Assembly: GCA_027315365.1 (NCBI GenBank)
Contig: DAHUYF010000038.1
Span: 1-55,918, forward strand
Reading direction: 5' to 3'
Length of the DNA: 55,918 nt
Origin: Rhodospirillales bacterium
GTDB taxonomy: Bacteria > Pseudomonadota > Alphaproteobacteria > ATCC43930 > CGMCC-115725
The notes beneath the pieces are model-generated. The model made no database searches. It had not been told where the DNA came from and saw only the letters and a program-made list of their open reading frames with translations. The translations under genes and the position numbers were made by a program. Position 1 is the first letter of the stretch; the number at the start of each line of letters is the position of its first letter. Below, in pieces: positions 37,722-45,045 of the stretch.

Positions 37722-40700
37722 TTGCGTAAAGTGTGGGGGACCCTTCTGTCCGGGCCGGTACTGTCGGCGGTCTGGCTCGTCATTTGCGCCATTTACATCC
37801 AAACGCAGGTCGGCTGGGACGTACTGGCCTCGATGCTGCCCAACGAGATCGCCGTGACGGTGCTCGGCGTCGCCATGCCGCTCGCCTTCATCTGGGTGGT
37901 CAGCAGCTTCCGCCGGCGCGCCGGCGCGCTTGCCGACGCGGCGGCGCGGCTTGCCGCGCAGGTCGACGCGCTCACCTCCCCGTCCGAAGGCGCCGAGGCG
38001 CGGGCGCGCAGCGCCGGCGAGATGCTGCGCCGTCAGGCGGAGGAACTGGCCGAGACGGTGGGCGGTGCGGCCCAGCGGCTCGAGCAGACGGCGAGCGGCC
38101 TTGGCGCGCGGATGGGCGATATCGCGACGACGGTGAGCGGCGCCGCCGAGCGCGCCGAGCGCAGCCGCGGCGGGCTCGAGGCGACCGCCGGCACGATCGA
38201 ACGCTTGGCGGCGACGATCGGCAGCCACGCCGCCCAGATCGAGAAATCCGCCGGCCGCGATCTGGCTGCCGCGACCGAGCGTCTGGCCGGCCAGGTGGCG
38301 GTGGTCGAGACCGTGGTCGAGCGCGCCTTCAGCGCCAGCGGCGACCGTATCGCGGGCCGCGCCGGCGAGCTGCAGGCGAGTCTCGTCGATGCCTTCGAGC
38401 GGGCTGCCGACCGCACCGGCGAGGAACTCGGCCGCGTCGGCGACCGGCTGCTGCGCGAAGCCGGCGCCGCGGCCGACCGCGTTGCCGCCGAGATCGGCGC
38501 CTTCGAAGCGATGGTGGCGCGCAGCACCGGCGCGGCGAGCGAACGGATGGCCGAGCAGAGCGGCGCCATCGAGCAGTTGCTGGGCCAGGTCTCGGCGCGG
38601 CTCGAGGCCTCGGCGACCCAGATCGGCGGCGCGGCGCGGCGCCGAGGCGCTGCACGCCGAGACCGAGGCGCTGCTCGTCGCGTCGGACAAGGCAGCGGCG
38701 CAGGCCGAGGTGCTTGCCACCACCTTCCGCAACTACGCTGCCGATCTCACCCGCCACACCGAGCAGAGCGCGAGCCAGGCGGAGCTGCTCGGCAGCACGT
38801 TCGCGCGCCAGGCCCAGGCGCTGCGCAATGCCGCCGCCGAGGCGCTGGTGCGCGTCAAGGACGGCGGCGAGGCCTTCGGCGGCAATGCGGAGCACCTCGC
38901 CGCCGCGGCGCGCAGCGCCAGCGCCCGGGTCGAGGAGGTGGGCGAGGCGCTGCGCCAGCAGGCGCGCGACTTGCTCGCCGCTTCCGAGCAGTCAGCGGTG
39001 CGCGTCCAGGCGGTGGGCGAGTCGCTGCGTCAGCGCAGCCAGGACATTTCGGCGGTGGTGCAGGGCACCATCGCCACTGTGCGCCAGGCGGTCGACAGCT
39101 TCCGCGAGAGCGGCGAGGCGCTCACCGGATCGGCCGACCAGGCCGCGACCAAGGTGGGCGAGGCCGCCAGCGGCCTGCGCGGCCAGGGCGCCGAACTGCA
39201 GGCGATCGCCGATCAGGCGGCGGCGAAGATGCGGCGGGCGGGCGAGAGCTTCGACCAGCAGGCGGACCGCCTTGCCACCGCCACGGCGGAGGCGAGCGCG
39301 GCGCTTACCAATGTGGGCGACATGCTGCGCCAGCATCTCGACGGGATGAAGGAAGGCACCGAGACGGCGGTGGCGCAGGTGGGCCAGCTGCACGAGGGGT
39401 TCACCCAGCAGCTCGGCCGGCTGAACGCCGTGCGCAACGCGGTCGCTGCGCAGGTCGCCGAGATCCGCAGCGTGCTGCAGCAGCAGACTCAGGAGCTTAC
39501 GCGCGCCTCCGAAGGGGCGGTGCAGCGCTCGAGTCAGGTGGGCGACGCCTTCCGCGAGCATTCGCGCCTGTTGCGCGACGCCGCCACCGAGGCGAGCACG
39601 CAGGCGGAGGCGATGGCGGTGGTGATGCAGCGCCAGGTACGCGATCTTCACACTGTGGCCGACAATCTCTCGGCGCTCACCGCCACGATCAACGAGACGC
39701 TGCAGGCAGGCGCCGGCGAGGTGACGCAGGCGACCGACCGCGCCCATGGCAAGATCGGGGAGATCGGCCAGCTTCTCGCCGAGCAGAGCCGCGCGCTCAG
39801 CCAGGCCAGCGAGGTGGCGGGGCTGCGGCTCGGACAGAGCGGCGATCTCCTGCGCCAGCGTGGCACCGAAGTTCAGGAGATCGCCGACCGCGCCGCGGCA
39901 AAGCTCGGCGAGGTCGGCGATCGCTTCAGCGAGCGCAGCCAGCAGGTGGCCTCGGCCAGCGATACGGCGAGCGGCAAGCTGCGCGATTCCAGCGCCGCCT
40001 TCCGCCAGCAGGCGCAGGACCTTGCCGGCGCCGCCGACCGCGTCGCGTCGCGGCTGCAGGATGCGAGCGAGCACCTGAACGAGCGCGCCGCGGCGGTGGC
40101 CGGCGCCGGGGATCTCGTCGCCAACCGGCTGCAGGAGCTGGGCGAGGCCGCGCGCAGCCAGGCGACCAACCTCACCGTCGCCTCGGAGGCGGCATCGACC
40201 AAGGGCGAGCAGCTGAACGAATCGCTGCGCCGCCAGCTGCGCGATCTCGCCGCCGCGGCCGAGCATACCGGCAGCCAGCTCGGCGAGGTGCGCGGCGCGC
40301 TGCGCGAGCAGACGACCGAGCTCAACGCCGCCACCGATAAGGCGGTGGAGCGGCTGCGCGACGTCGCCGACAGCTTCCGCCGCCATTCCGGCGACCTCAT
40401 CGCCGCCGCCGATCGCGCCGGCGTCAAGGCAAAGGACGCCGCCGTGCTGTTCGAGACGCAGACCGAGAGCCTGCTCAAGGCGGCGAACGAGGCGTCGAGC
40501 GAAGCCCAGCGCGTGCGCGAGGCGGCGATCCAGACGCAGCAGGACACCTTCCTCAAGGCCGCCACCTTTATCATCGAGACGCTGCAGTCGATCGCGGTCG
40601 ACCTCAACCGCGTGCTCGATCAGAGCATCCCGGATGCGGTGTGGAAGCGCTTCCATGCCGGCGACCGCGGCATCTTCACGCGCCAGCTGCTGCAGATGCA

Positions 40701-40914
40701 GGAGAAGAACGCCGGCTCGCTGATCAAGAAGAAGTTCGAGGAGGATCCCGGCTTCCGCGACTACGTGCTGCGCTATCTCAACCAGTTCGAGAATCTGCTC
40801 GCTCAGGCGCGCGAATGCGACCACATGGACGTGCTCGGCGCCACCTTCGTCACCGCCGATGTCGGCAAGCTCTACCTCATCCTCTCCAATGCCGTAGGCC
40901 GGCTGAAGCACTGA
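37722..40914 (+). CDS. Membrane-anchored giant coiled-coil protein with 25-residue repeats (reading frame broken near 38640)
   Basis: Read with one frame correction, this encodes about 1,060 residues: two N-terminal membrane helices (about 13-30 and 43-61), a helical region (about 65-305), 25 uninterrupted repeats of exactly 25 residues (38647-40521), and a globular C-terminus (from QTQQDTFLKAATFIIETLQS to the end). The frame changes by +1 between about 38625 and 38645 in a GC-rich run; both flanks keep clear coding character, so sequencing error or recent mutation is likely. The start is a TTG at 37722 (GTG at 37731 is possible). Layout (two membrane helices, long coiled coil, conserved end) recalls Caulobacter TipN and large alphaproteobacterial apolipoprotein-like proteins. 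Role in envelope or polar organisation is inferred. Confidence 0.65.
38647..40521 (+). repeat. 25 tandem 75-base units encoding 25-residue helical repeats
   Basis: The 1,875 bases divide into exactly 25 units of 75 with no insertion or deletion. Unit position 2 is Leu, Phe or Met in 24 units and position 9 is Leu, Ile, Met or Val in all 25 (Leu in 19). A loose consensus is small-[L/F]-R-x-Q, then L at 9, A at 12-16 and G-[E/D] at 24-25. DNA identity between units is low, so this is a structural, old repeat. Confidence 0.85.
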
Positions 40915-41032: not shown

Positions 41033-41488
41033 TCAGGCCGCTTTCTGGTCGATGACCCGGGCACCGCCGCCCTTGGCGATCTCGACCTTGCGCGGCTTCA
41101 TCGCCTCGGGGATCTCGCGGACGAGGTCGACATGCAGCAGGCCGTTGTCGAGGCTGGCGCCGGCGACCTTGATGTGATCGGCGAGCTGGAAGCGGCGTTC
41201 GAAGGCGCGCCGGGCGATGCCGCGATAGAGGTACTGTCGGTCCTCCTCCTCGGCCTTCGACTTGCCGGTGACCAGCAGCGCGTTTTCCTGCACCGTGATG
41301 TCGAGCTCGTCGGCAGCGAAGCCGGCCACCGCCATGGTCAGGCGGTAGGCGTTCTCGCCGGTGCTCTCGATATTGTAGGGCGGGTATCCGTTGCCGCTGT
41401 CGACCCGCGTCGCCGCGTCGGCGAGCCGCATCAGGCGGTCGAAGCCGATGCTGGAACGGAACAGGGGAGAGAGATCGAAGCTGTCCAT
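41033..41488 (-). CDS. Hsp20/alpha-crystallin small heat-shock protein (IbpA-like)
   Basis: This 151-residue chaperone has the N-terminus MDSFDLSPLFRSSIGFDRLM, the alpha-crystallin domain (about 35-130, with YPPYNIESTGENAYRLTMAV and YRGIARRAFERRFQLADH) and the IbpA-type C-terminus. The ATG at 41488 is chosen because GGAGGA lies seven bases upstream; the ATG at 41494 touches that site. It holds denatured proteins for refolding by DnaK/ClpB. A candidate RpoH promoter is about 100 bases upstream, as expected for a heat-shock gene. Monocistronic. Confidence 0.93.
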   Translation of the reverse strand: MDSFDLSPLFRSSIGFDRLMRLADAATRVDSGNGYPPYNIESTGENAYRLTMAVAGFAADELDITVQENALLVTGKSKAEEEDRQYLYRGIARRAFERRFQLADHIKVAGASLDNGLLHVDLVREIPEAMKPRKVEIAKGGGARVIDQKAA

Positions 41489-41590
41489 GACCATATCCTC
41501 CGATGAGCAACATGGGGTTCCGCTCGGGCCCGCCGGAATGGCCGGACCCGGAAACGGATCGGACCCGCAAGGCGGCGTCCGACGCTATCG

Positions 41591-41714: not shown

Positions 41715-42107
41715 GTGACGGCGACCACCTTCTTCAGCAAGACCTACAACGAGGCGATGGACCTTCTGGTCGAGGCGCGCGACTACTTGGCGCATCGCGA
41801 GCCGATCGACCGGCAGGCCCTGATGCCGCTGCAGCGCCTGCATTTCTGCTGCGAGACGATGCGGCTTACGGCGCGGCTGACGCAGATGATGGCCTGGCTG
41901 CTGGCGCAGCGCGCGGTCTTCGCCGGGGAGATCAGCCAGCAAGACGCGCTCGCCGAGCATGGCGCCCTGGCCGAGGTCGAGATTTGCATGGGCAGCGAGG
42001 CCGAGGCGGCGATGCCGCAACGGCTTGCCAGCCTGCTCGACCGCAGCCGCCGGCTCTATCTGCGCGTCGCCCGCCTCGACGAGATGGCGCGCCGTCAGAT
42101 CGCCTGA
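41715..42107 (+). CDS. rcdA: RcdA-family protein (DUF1465), regulator of CtrA degradation
   Basis: This 130-residue helical-bundle protein begins FFSKTYNEAMDLLVEARDYL at residue 6 and has the core LHFCCETMRLTARLTQMMAW and LLAQRAVFAGEI, which identify RcdA/DUF1465. In Caulobacter it is the adaptor that, with CpdR, PopA and ClpXP, brings CtrA to the cell pole for degradation at the start of S phase. The start codon is the GTG at 41715. It stands alone between divergent hsp20 and convergent rpmE. Presence of RcdA implies a CtrA-type cell-cycle circuit in the organism. Confidence 0.88.
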   Translation: MTATTFFSKTYNEAMDLLVEARDYLAHREPIDRQALMPLQRLHFCCETMRLTARLTQMMAWLLAQRAVFAGEISQQDALAEHGALAEVEICMGSEAEAAMPQRLASLLDRSRRLYLRVARLDEMARRQIA

Positions 42108-42825: not shown

Positions 42826-43887
42826 TCAGCGCTCCGTCAGCTTGAGTTCGATACGCCGGTTGCGGCGGAAGGCGCCCTCGTCATTGCCGGTATCGAGCGG
42901 CTGGAACTCCCCGAATCCGGCGGCAACCAGGCGGTTGGCGGGGATTCCCTGGTCGATGAAGAAGCGCACCACCGAGATCGCCCGCGCCGTCGACAGCTCC
43001 CAGTTGGAGGGGAATTGCGGCGTGTTGATCGGCCGCTTGTCGGTGTGGCCGTCGACCCGCAGCACCCAGTTGATCTCCGGCGGAATCTTGGCCGATATCT
43101 CCTTGAGCGCCTGAGCCACCGGCAGCAGGCGCTGCTTGGCGTCGTCGGAGAGCGAGGCGCTGCCCAGCGGGAACAGCACCTCCGACTGGAAGACGAAACG
43201 GTCGCCGACGATGCGGATGTCCGGCCGGTCGCCCAGCACCTCGCGCAGCCGCCCGAAGAACTCCGAGCGGTAGCGCGCCAGCTCCTCGACCTTGCTGGCG
43301 AGCGCGGCGTTGAGGCGCTTGCCGAGCTCGGCTATCTGCACCTGCTGGTCCTTGCTCTTGGTTTCCGAGGCGTCCAGCGCCGCGGCGATCTGCTGCAGCT
43401 GCTGGCGCAGCGCGAGGAGCTGCTGATTGAGCTGGTCGATGGTGGTCTGTGCCGTGGCCAGCTTGGCGTCGCGCTCGGCCACCTGCTGCTGCGCCGCACC
43501 CAGCCGGGCCTGGAGATCGGCCGAGCTGTCGCGCGTGGCGGCGGTGGCGTCGTCGGCCCGGTTGCTGAGCTCGGCGACGCGGTCGGTCAGCGCGTCGCGC
43601 TCGGCATTGACCGATTGCAGCTGGCTCGACAGCTGCGCCACGGTCTTGCGGAGGTCGGCGTTGGCGTTCTCGTCGAGCGCCAGCATGTCCGAGAGCTGCT
43701 GGATCTTCAGTCGGAGGTCGTGGACCTCGGCGTCGCGGCCGGTAAGCGCGTCGCTCAGGTAGAACTGGCCGGCGGTGAACACCAACAGCACGAAGACGAT
43801 GACCATGACCAGCTGCGACAGGGCGTCGACGAAGCCCGGCCAGATGTCGATGCTGGGACGGCGCTGGCGGCGCGAGGGAATCGCCAT
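42826..43887 (-). CDS. MotB/OmpA-like peptidoglycan-binding stator protein
   Basis: This 353-residue protein has one N-terminal membrane helix (about 22-42) preceded by WPGFVDALSQLV, whose Asp21 is positioned like the proton-carrying Asp of MotB. Then comes a long Gln/Ala-rich coiled coil (about 50-205) and a C-terminal OmpA domain (RVDGHTDKRPI near 280, RRNRRIELKL at the end) that binds peptidoglycan. Together with the upstream MotA-like protein it should form a proton-driven, wall-anchored unit. No flagellar gene is nearby. TAGGAG lies before the ATG at 43887. It is the last gene of the three-gene leftward operon, 9 bases after the MotA-like stop. Confidence 0.87.
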   Translation of the reverse strand: MAIPSRRQRRPSIDIWPGFVDALSQLVMVIVFVLLVFTAGQFYLSDALTGRDAEVHDLRLKIQQLSDMLALDENANADLRKTVAQLSSQLQSVNAERDALTDRVAELSNRADDATAATRDSSADLQARLGAAQQQVAERDAKLATAQTTIDQLNQQLLALRQQLQQIAAALDASETKSKDQQVQIAELGKRLNAALASKVEELARYRSEFFGRLREVLGDRPDIRIVGDRFVFQSEVLFPLGSASLSDDAKQRLLPVAQALKEISAKIPPEINWVLRVDGHTDKRPINTPQFPSNWELSTARAISVVRFFIDQGIPANRLVAAGFGEFQPLDTGNDEGAFRRNRRIELKLTER

Positions 43888-43896
43888 TGAAGGCTC

Positions 43897-45045
43897 CTAG
43901 GAGCGCTCCGGCTCCTCGGCCAGAGCGGCGATGGTGCGGGCGAGCAGCCGGATCTCGCTGCGGATCTCCTGCGTCGCCTCGCCGCGGCCTTGCGCCACGT
44001 CCTCGGCGAGCCGCGCCAGGTAGATCTCTATGTTGCGCAGGTGCCCGCGCGTCTCGTCGTGGCCGAGCGGACCGGAGGCGGTGGCGTCGGCCAGGCGCTG
44101 CAGCACCGGCTTCAGCTCCACTTGCCCCTCGGCGAGCCGCAGCAGCAGCGTCTGCTCGGTGCGCATCTGGTCGGTCAGCGTCGCCAGCCGCTCGGTCAGC
44201 GCCTGAAGATTGGTGTTGGCGGAGATGCGGCTCTCTTCGCCGCGCCCCATGATGCGTTGGAGATTGTCGAGGCTGTCGGCGGTCTGCTCAAGCAGCGCCT
44301 GGATGAAGGCCGGGACCGAAGCGTCGCCGGCATCGCTCGCCGGTCCGCCGCCGGACAGCCGCGTGTAGCCGGAGAGATACTCCTCGAGATCGTGATAGAA
44401 GCGGTTCTGCGCCAGCCCGGCCTGAAGATCGAGGAAGCCCAGCACCAGCGACCCCGCCAGCCCGAACAGCGAGGCGCTGAAAGCGGTGCTCATGCCGCCC
44501 AGCGGCGACTGGAGCCCGTTCTTGAGGTCGTTGAAGGCGCGCAGGGGATCGCTGGCGCCGGCCGACAGCGTGCCGATCACGCCGCCCACCGACTGCACCG
44601 TCTCGAGCAGGCCGTAGAAGGTGCCGAGCAGGCCGAGGAACACGAGCAGGCCGATCAGGTAGCGCGAGGTCTCGCGGGTTTCATCGAGCCGCGTGCCGAT
44701 GCCGTCGAGCAGCGTGCGCATGGATACGGCCGACAGGCTGACGCGCGCGCCGCGGCGGTCGGCCAGCATCGTCGCCATCGGCGCCAGCAGCCGCGGCTGC
44801 TGCTCGCCGGAGCCGGTCGCCTGGTTGCGGCGAAAGCGCTCGAGCCAGGCGACCTCGGGATTGAGCAGCATTACCTGGCGGAAGATGTAGAGGATGCCGG
44901 CGAGGAGGATGAACAGGATGACGCCGTTGACCGCGGGGTTGCCCATGAAGAAGCGGTAGAGCGCAGGCGACAGCGCCGCCGCGATGGCGGAAACCATGGC
45001 AACGAAGACGGCCATCCGGGTGAGATAGCGCTGCGGGCGGGTCAC
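43897..45045 (-). CDS. MotA/TolQ/ExbB-like proton channel protein
   Basis: This 382-residue protein has membrane helices at about 10-30, 38-57, 132-150 and 190-208, with a MotA/TolQ/ExbB-like core (SRYLIGLLVFLGLLGTFYGL then GMSTAFSASLFGLAGSLVLG). A cytoplasmic loop lies between helices 2 and 3, and a long C-terminal helical tail of about 170 residues includes charged coiled coil. It would surround the MotB-like helix as the channel of a stator complex. The initiation codon is the GTG at 45045. The pair resembles, but is not, the ZorA/ZorB pair of Zorya defence, because no ZorC/D/E gene follows. Biological role unknown; envelope mechanics or Tol-like work is possible. Confidence 0.85.
   Translation of the reverse strand: MTRPQRYLTRMAVFVAMVSAIAAALSPALYRFFMGNPAVNGVILFILLAGILYIFRQVMLLNPEVAWLERFRRNQATGSGEQQPRLLAPMATMLADRRGARVSLSAVSMRTLLDGIGTRLDETRETSRYLIGLLVFLGLLGTFYGLLETVQSVGGVIGTLSAGASDPLRAFNDLKNGLQSPLGGMSTAFSASLFGLAGSLVLGFLDLQAGLAQNRFYHDLEEYLSGYTRLSGGGPASDAGDASVPAFIQALLEQTADSLDNLQRIMGRGEESRISANTNLQALTERLATLTDQMRTEQTLLLRLAEGQVELKPVLQRLADATASGPLGHDETRGHLRNIEIYLARLAEDVAQGRGEATQEIRSEIRLLARTIAALAEEPERS

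What the first reader, a model, noticed from the sequence alone, without database searches (positions are those of the whole stretch)
38647..40521. Protein with 25 consecutive repeats of exactly 25 residues
Reading the frame in blocks of 75 bases from 38647 gives 25 units with no indel. Hydrophobic positions 2 and 9 hold throughout (position 9 is Leu/Ile/Met/Val in all 25 units, position 2 is Leu/Phe/Met in 24). Twenty-five residues equal two heptads plus one hendecad (7 turns, 3.57 residues per turn), so the array should form one very regular, slightly underwound rod or amphipathic helix, roughly 90 nm long if fully helical. It hangs from two N-terminal membrane helices and ends in a conserved-looking domain. 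Exact unit length with low DNA identity means selection on geometry, as for a molecular ruler, a polar scaffold (TipN-like) or a lipid-binding apolipoprotein-like surface.
Basis: partly seen in the sequence, partly recalled or inferred. Interest (0 to 1): 0.78.

Follow-up and report, generated by a model that had tools for sequence, protein, structure and literature searches.

The report
Membrane-anchored rod of 25-residue repeats
The window encodes a membrane-anchored protein with a very long, geometrically regular helical rod and a conserved tip domain, related to a protein that organises the growing cell pole in rhizobia and, at both ends, to MamY, which positions magnetosome chains in magnetic bacteria.

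Summary
In detail: 25 units of exactly 25 residues at 38647-40521, no indel. Hydrophobicity peaks sharply at 3.572 residues (25/7): two heptads plus one hendecad. The array is the rod of a larger protein: a two-helix membrane hairpin (in another frame here, because five bases are missing relative to two close relatives) and a strongly conserved C-terminal domain. That domain matches the C-terminus of Sinorhizobium meliloti RgsE, homolog of the Agrobacterium growth pole ring protein GPR (tblastn 3e-19); the hairpin matches RgsE more weakly. Pfam and NCBIfam have no model that fits the domain, yet it occurs in 149 of 385 alphaproteobacterial genomes sampled. Unexpectedly, both ends also match MamY, the magnetosome-chain positioning protein (hhalign E 2.5e-18 and 1.2e-7; permuted controls far lower). 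Relatives' open frames range from 514 to 1753 aa, and many rod changes keep the helix phase: geometry is selected, not a fixed length. A scaffold is supported; a ruler and a true apolipoprotein are not. Best reading: a polar or membrane-geometry scaffold of a GPR/RgsE-MamY family. Localisation and partners in this organism are inferred. TipN itself could not be tested.

The parts
37722..38636 (+). [quoted passage not shown]
   Evidence: Open frame; aligned with 13 named relatives; hhalign to RgsE/Shinella anchor 88%, E 2.9e-6; to MamY 99%, E 2.5e-18
37743..37799 (+). membrane helix 1 (residues about 8-26)
   Evidence: Kyte-Doolittle 19-residue window mean 2.19; no K or R in the following loop
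37848..37904 (+). membrane helix 2 (residues about 43-61), followed by FRRR (positive-inside, so N- and C-terminus probably cytoplasmic)
   Evidence: Kyte-Doolittle 19-residue window mean 2.28
37947..38636 (+). membrane-proximal rod, hydrophobic period 3.624 (about 29/8), lags 22 and 11
38620..38646 (+). frame break: five bases fewer than in L003 and L004 in a GC-rich short repeat; separates hairpin frame from array frame
38647..40521 (+). rod: 25 units of exactly 25 residues, core positions 2, 6, 9, 13, 16, 20, 23 (spacing 4-3-4-3-4-3-4)
40522..40911 (+). C-terminal domain, all-helical; homologous to the C-terminus of RgsE and of MamY; the 122 modelled residues are 40546-40911
   Evidence: 16 loci in genome contigs, one of them partial; RgsE tblastn E 3e-19; MamY hhalign E 1.2e-7; model pLDDT 87.3, pTM 0.83, seven helices

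Best explanation
The gene encodes a membrane-anchored scaffold of the GPR/RgsE family, about 1,060 aa long in its nearest intact relative. A hairpin of two membrane helices holds both ends in the cytoplasm. From it rises a helical rod of some 850 residues, whose outer 625 residues repeat every 25 residues so that seven core positions fall on one nearly straight seam (3.571 residues per turn). This seam probably zips two or more copies into a parallel coiled coil of roughly 90 nm for the array alone. At the far tip sits a conserved helical domain, the most constrained part measured, which probably docks partners or cross-links rods. Shown: anatomy in sequence, periodicity, selection, homology of hairpin and tip to RgsE and MamY. 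Inferred: that the whole rod is one helix, oligomer state, topology, localisation at a pole or a region of particular membrane geometry, and the role as an organising centre.
For: Tip domain matches S. meliloti RgsE (36%, E 3e-19; CDS of 2,089 aa, the published RgsE length) at the same end of the protein. Hairpin region matches RgsE/Shinella (hhalign 88%, E 2.9e-6) and MamY (99%, E 2.5e-18); tip matches MamY (94%, E 1.2e-7); 60 column-permuted controls for each reach scores of only 21.9 (tip) and 19.6 (hairpin) against 52.9 and 123. HMMER: tip model hits 21 of 28 MamY-set proteins at E <= 1e-3 and hairpin model 27 of 28 at E <= 4.2e-7 (several of the 28 are near-identical), best unrelated ORF E 3.7 and 0.21 among 450 ORFs. 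Period 25/7. Tip dN/dS 0.00-0.02. Literature: GPR and RgsE are anchored by two N-terminal helices with the bulk in the cytoplasm, sit at the growing pole and shape the cell (passages and sections of PMC8262873, PMC7327166); removing 10 or 221 C-terminal residues of GPR damages function; MamY localises to positive curvature and self-interacts (passages of PMC13052382).
Against: No localisation or interaction data for this protein. PMC7327166 found no other Rgs proteins in Rhodospirillales, so the partners of RgsE are probably missing. Two other sampled genomes of the same family and one of the same order have no match (G277, G355, G182), so it is not universal in that clade. This assembly has a broken frame. 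RgsE has a different rod period (3.654, lags 11/22) and is twice as long. RgsE hairpin similarity is only 88% probability, from two sequences. GPR lacking 332 C-terminal residues works better than GPR lacking 221, so the tip is not simply indispensable. MamY prefers positive curvature, while pole-located chemoreceptors in the table of PMC12004969 are listed with negative curvature (passage), and deleting mamY does not disturb the chain in one of two species (PMC9512821 passage). The coiled-coil partner number was not computed.
Confidence: 0.7

Rival explanations
1. Molecular ruler: exact unit length and number set a distance.
For: No gap over 755 aa in two relatives 12-13% diverged; no sign of recent homogenisation: every unit's best match is the unit in the same place, 25 of 25 in both.
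Confidence: 0.06
2. Apolipoprotein-like amphipathic helix that lies on lipid.
For: PF01442 is the best Pfam hit of both halves (7e-7, 8.5e-8) and RgsE exceeds its cut-off (257.8 bits); GPR is classed this way in PMC8262873.
Against: 29.6 and 32.6 bits against 90; 7 of 14 control genomes ring below the cut-off; only 20% L/I/V/M/F/Y, no Pro or Trp in 625 residues, apolar residues on a narrow 4-3 spaced seam (counts). None of this excludes lipid contact.
Confidence: 0.1
3. The protein is a polar-growth organiser in the strict GPR sense, i.e. this bacterium grows from a pole.
For: Homology of both ends to RgsE.
Against: The other Rgs proteins were reported absent from Rhodospirillales (PMC7327166 passage); the family is spread over 149 of 385 sampled alphaproteobacteria, which to my knowledge is wider than known polar growth; MamY has no growth role in the passages read.
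Confidence: 0.2
4. The gene is dead in this strain (real frameshift).
For: Five bases fewer than in two relatives, frames differ.
Against: The lesion lies in a GC-rich short repeat of an assembly of 215 contigs, to my knowledge a usual place for assembly error; no further stop in 755 downstream codons.
Confidence: 0.15

Closest known systems
RgsE (SMc00190) of Sinorhizobium meliloti / GPR (Atu1348) of Agrobacterium tumefaciens
   Same: Two N-terminal membrane helices, long helical region, homologous C-terminal domain and juxtamembrane region; literature topology and role: passages and sections of PMC7327166 and PMC8262873.
   Different: About half the length; rod period 3.571 (25) instead of 3.654 (11/22); no proline-rich linker before the tip such as RgsE has; PF01442 below cut-off.
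MamY (NCBIfam NF040997) of magnetospirilla
   Same: Homologous hairpin with the GW-xx-L-xx-LP-x-E loop and homologous C-terminal domain, in the same order.
   Different: MamY is about 371 aa (PMC3905215 passage) with little room for a rod; the window protein is not hit by NF040997 at E <= 1.
TipN of Caulobacter crescentus
   Same: [quoted passage not shown] GPR is said to be similar to TipN (PMC8546619 passage). 13 of 19 genomes with the holdfast protein HfaB over its cut-off carry the tip domain.
   Different: TipN's sequence could not be obtained; membership not tested.
Apolipoprotein A1/A4/E (PF01442)
   Same: Repeated amphipathic helix.
   Different: Below the gathering score; heptad/hendecad seam rather than a broad apolar face.

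Membership tests
GPR/RgsE | two N-terminal membrane helices with cytoplasmic bulk | tested here: met
   Two hydrophobic peaks, RRR after the second; topology itself inferred
GPR/RgsE | homologous juxtamembrane/anchor sequence | tested here: met
   hhalign A5 vs RgsE+Shinella 88.3%, E 2.9e-6, 81 columns; weaker than the tip
GPR/RgsE | homologous C-terminal domain at the very C-terminus | tested here: met
   tblastn 35.7%, E 3e-19; alignment A2
GPR/RgsE | long uninterrupted helix | tested here: inconclusive
   sequence periodicity fits; only the last 200 residues were modelled, with 70 rod residues in one helix
GPR/RgsE | size near 2,100 aa and PF01442 above cut-off (as in GPR, RgsE) | tested here: not met
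   about 1,060 aa in L003; 32.6 bits against 90. A trait of the rhizobial members rather than of homology
GPR/RgsE | localises to the growing pole, ring of six foci | not testable with these tools
   needs microscopy
MamY (NF040997) | NCBIfam score of at least 600 bits | tested here: not met
   not listed at E <= 1 for any part
MamY (wider homology) | hairpin and C-terminal domain homologous and colinear | tested here: met
MamY (wider homology) | encoded with magnetosome genes | not tested
   of the mam families only NF040997 was searched for in the genome (no match in G000 at E <= 0.01)
Apolipoprotein PF01442 | gathering score 90 bits | tested here: not met
   29.6 and 32.6 bits
TipN | sequence homology to TipN | not tested
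   no TipN sequence reachable; HfaB-bearing genomes used as a proxy, crescentin marker found in 0 of 96 genomes of one proxy family
Molecular ruler | rod length conserved among orthologs | tested here: not met
   open frames 514-1753 aa, gaps listed; constant only in L003 and L004

The most novel reading that the evidence does not exclude
GPR/RgsE, the protein in this window, probably TipN, and MamY are one ancient alphaproteobacterial family with fixed ends (membrane hairpin and tip domain) and a rod of freely variable length built from 7- and 11-residue steps. Recognition of membrane geometry, by self-assembly of the ends, is the ancestral job. Magnetotactic bacteria took a rod-poor copy to hold magnetosome chains; rhizobia lengthened the rod to organise polar growth.
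Probability: 0.4. Interest if true: 0.82.

Novelty: new variant of a known kind. Interest (0 to 1): 0.64.

Why it matters
How GPR, TipN and MamY find their place on the membrane is open; the 2025 review PMC12004969 says that the mechanism by which MamY detects curvature remains unclear (passage). A shared hairpin and a shared tip domain point to the parts to mutate and allow swaps between a polar-growth protein and a magnetosome protein. The tip domain has no fitting Pfam or NCBIfam model (41 members scanned) although it is in 149 of 385 sampled alphaproteobacterial genomes. The 25-residue array is also a clean natural example of a helix seam with a fixed 25/7 twist, set against an 11/3-like rod in RgsE.

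Tried and rejected
Fold search of the tip domain against solved structures: no Foldseek match at E <= 0.001 (best 0.085); VIA-align best Z 6.4 over 73 residues, generic helical bundles. The rod-plus-tip model also gave none (best 0.27). These absences do not show a new fold. PDB sequence search of the tip: 0 hits at E <= 1.

Paralog hint at C78 (27 bases): not supported; the profile finds one copy in the genome at E <= 10.

NF040997 hits of the tip domains were first seen as weak (5 of 41, best E 0.0054) and were followed because one relative also matched the other end of that model. The family of that relative gave only itself (1 of 13). A class-wide MamY search found only 2 of 385 genomes; the order of G344 gave 28 of 297, of which 12 exceed the cut-off. 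I dropped no row of the 28-protein MamY set (picked): the tip model missed 7 of 28 at E <= 1e-3, three of them above E 0.5; the hairpin model missed L076, a short frame. In the 17-row alignment A9 I left out 11 of the 28 (near-identical or otherwise irregular). The lag analysis used 14 of the 16 named loci (not L017, L018).

TipN: crescentin (PF19220) was used twice to find a Caulobacter genome and failed (0 of 385; 0 of 96). HfaB marks holdfast bearers; 13 of 19 over cut-off have the tip domain and 6 have no listed match (G063, G278, G356, G080, G195, G137).

Phase test: 60 register jumps between well-scored segments in 11 relatives keep core on core (overlap 4.27 against 1.75 +- 0.27), but 30 of the 60 are -4 steps, largely of the 29-residue arrays of L005 and L006, so they are not independent.

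Gene neighbours (HSP20, OmpA-like) are conserved but suggest no function by themselves. Library searches for TipN with RgsE (0 papers) and for '25-residue repeat' with coiled coil and bacteria (0 papers) gave nothing.

Full report
WHAT IS THERE. The frame at 38647-40521 encodes 25 consecutive 25-residue units without indel. The consensus has apolar residues at positions 2 (24 of 25), 9 (25 of 25), 20 (17) and 23 (17), mostly small residues at 6, 13 and 16, and mostly polar or charged residues at 3-5, 7, 8, 14, 15, 19, 21, 22 and 25. The spacing of the core positions is 4-3-4-3-4-3-4, seven per unit: two heptads plus one hendecad. The Fourier spectrum of hydrophobicity has a sharp peak at 3.572 (power 731; at most 132 in 200 shuffles); at 3.5, 3.6 and 3.667 the power is 6, 36 and 5. 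Lags 25, 50, 75, 100 and 125 dominate self-similarity. The array holds no Pro, Trp or Cys.

THE WHOLE PROTEIN. Upstream, in another frame, lie two hydrophobic helices and a membrane-proximal rod whose period is 3.624, near 29/8. Alignment with two close relatives shows five bases fewer here, in a GC-rich repeat near 38626. L003 is open from inside the hairpin to the C-terminus; L004 begins later on its contig. I cannot tell assembly error from mutation; I analysed the two pieces apart. Downstream, 40522-40911 is a domain that is 98% identical to L003 and L004 while the array is less conserved: dN/dS 0.02 against 0.23-0.25. AlphaFold models of the last 200 residues (40-row alignment, mean pLDDT 82.6) and of the domain alone (41 rows, pLDDT 87.3, pTM 0.83) give one unbroken helix from the last 70 rod residues into a compact domain of seven helices. 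The rest of the rod was not modelled.

SELECTION ON GEOMETRY, NOT ON LENGTH. In L003 and L004 the 755 residues align without a gap at 87-88% identity, and each unit's best match is the unit in the same place (25 of 25 in each), while units within one protein share on average 23% of residues and 47% of bases. The array is therefore old and not being homogenised. Lag 25 is the strongest in 11 of 14 relatives tested and among the top three in all 14. More distant relatives gain and lose segments: L007 a net 11 residues, L009 and L011 18 residues in one piece, L016 18 in two pieces, L015 several of 25, 36, 11 and 14 but also 114 and a loss of 3; L008, L010, L012 and L013 show messier patterns. L005 and L006 carry a tandem block of 29-residue units (7+11+11) beside the 25-residue units. 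Sixty register jumps between well-scored segments in 11 relatives keep core positions on core positions, with the dependence noted under Tried and rejected. Open frames with hairpin and tip range from 514 to 1753 aa stop to stop; in the longest the hairpin begins about 180 residues in. A fixed ruler is thus unlikely; a seam of nearly constant twist is what is kept.

RELATION TO RgsE/GPR. The tip domain finds six plasmid-collection records at E <= 0.01, among them an S. meliloti CDS annotated 'kinesin' of 2,089 aa (E 3e-19, 36%), the length published for RgsE (PMC7327166, passage); that it is RgsE is inferred from species, length and its PF01442 content. The match lies at the C-terminal end in both. 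Hairpin regions match at 88% probability. RgsE's rod is different: lags 22, 33, 11, 44 and a peak at 3.654. PMC7327166 already reports distant RgsE homologs in Rhodospirillales and Emcibacterales and no other Rgs proteins there, and suggests a different role (passage). In GPR, removal of the last 10 residues impairs and of the last 221 abolishes function, though removal of 332 is less severe (PMC8262873, section 9). The sections and passages I read of that paper do not name a conserved C-terminal domain.

DISTRIBUTION. The profile A2 matches 149 of 385 alphaproteobacterial genomes drawn from the class (125 of 315 of good quality), usually once per genome; in the window's own family two sampled genomes have it (G000, G060) and two have no match (G277, G355). 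Among the listed loci the domain is nearly always at the very C-terminus; L033 is an exception with 411 residues after it. Scanning 41 members gives no Pfam or NCBIfam family with a convincing score (best E 0.0057 and 0.0045).

THE LINK TO MamY. Five of 41 tip domains touched the NCBIfam model of MamY (best E 0.0054), and the N-terminal part of that model hit the N-terminus of another family member. Searching the order of G344 produced 28 of 297 genomes with matches, 12 above the MamY cut-off. Profile comparison of 17 of these proteins with the window family gives 99% and E 2.5e-18 for the hairpin (59 columns, including the loop GW-xx-L-xx-LP-x-E) and 94% and E 1.2e-7 for the tip (107 columns). 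With only five true MamY rows the values are 9.4e-10 and 2.3e-6; 60 column permutations of each profile stay at or below scores of 19.6 (hairpin) and 21.9 (tip), against 123 and 52.9. HMMER agrees: the hairpin model hits 27 of 28 MamY-set proteins (E <= 4.2e-7; best other ORF 0.21) and the tip model 21 of 28 (E <= 1e-3; best other ORF 3.7), among 450 ORFs; several of the 28 are near-identical. The MamY-only model hits the window's N-terminal piece at 2.5e-8. Order of the parts is the same. I take homology of MamY to this family as about 90% likely. G344 carries both a MamY-like protein and a longer member on different contigs, so the two can coexist as paralogs. A search of the held library for papers with two of MamY, 'growth pole ring', RgsE, TipN listed 10 papers, of which two hold MamY and neither is about these proteins by its title; a second search listed 12 of 37 papers, and I read passages of three MamY papers on that list (PMC9512821, PMC11628618, PMC13052382) and of two others (PMC12004969, PMC3905215) without finding the link. 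Subscription papers, including the main MamY paper, are not held.

HOW IT PROBABLY WORKS. Shown: hairpin, rod periodicity, tip, constraint, homology. Inferred: copies zip into a parallel coiled coil along the seam; the hairpin keeps the base in the inner membrane; the rod carries the tip some 90 nm or more into the cytoplasm or along the membrane; the tip gathers partners or other rods into a patch at a pole or at a certain curvature. MamY self-interacts and finds positive curvature, also in a foreign host (PMC13052382, passage), and GPR forms a polar ring (PMC8262873 abstract); a shared hairpin and tip make self-assembly with a geometric preference the economical common denominator. Against a simple shared curvature sense: the table of PMC12004969 lists MamY with positive and the pole-located chemoreceptors with negative curvature, and in one species deletion of mamY leaves the chain in place (PMC9512821). 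What the scaffold organises in this bacterium is unknown.

TipN. PMC8546619 states that GPR is similar to TipN, and PMC13170164 calls the two analogous (passages). I could not obtain TipN. Of 19 genomes with HfaB above cut-off, 13 have the tip domain; I read the proteins of seven of these (684-1030 aa) and all seven have the hairpin region (N-anchor hits 1.5e-12 to 6.6e-19). This is compatible with TipN being a member, no more.

Noticed in passing
42826-43887 (-) and 43897-45045 (-): A PRK09039-type peptidoglycan-binding OmpA protein (465.9 bits) beside a protein with a weak ZorA hit (E 0.0039). The OmpA gene lies near the rod gene in 9 of 16 named loci, one partial (some loci end too early to tell); RgsE interacts with TolQ in S. 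meliloti, so a functional tie is conceivable.
   Followed up: partly
41033-41494 (-): An IbpA-like small heat-shock gene, convergent with the rod gene, found in 12 of 16 named loci.
   Followed up: partly
41715-42107 (+): DUF1465 protein resembling the protease adaptor RcdA (83.3 bits, below the NCBIfam cut-off of 170).
   Followed up: no
L005 and L006, C-terminal half of the rod: Tandem block of 29-residue units (7+11+11) similar to one another, apparently a recent expansion next to the old 25-residue array.
   Followed up: partly
L055:1027-2025 (+): MamY-like gene (NF040997 109.8 bits) whose flanking ORFs do not look like magnetosome genes by eye; MamY-like proteins may exist outside magnetosome clusters.
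   Followed up: no
L021 and L022, upstream of the rod gene: An Hpt-domain gene lies upstream, divergent, in both S. meliloti and Sphingomonas parapaucimobilis.
   Followed up: no
L033: Tip domain in the middle of a 944-residue frame with 411 residues after it.
   Followed up: no
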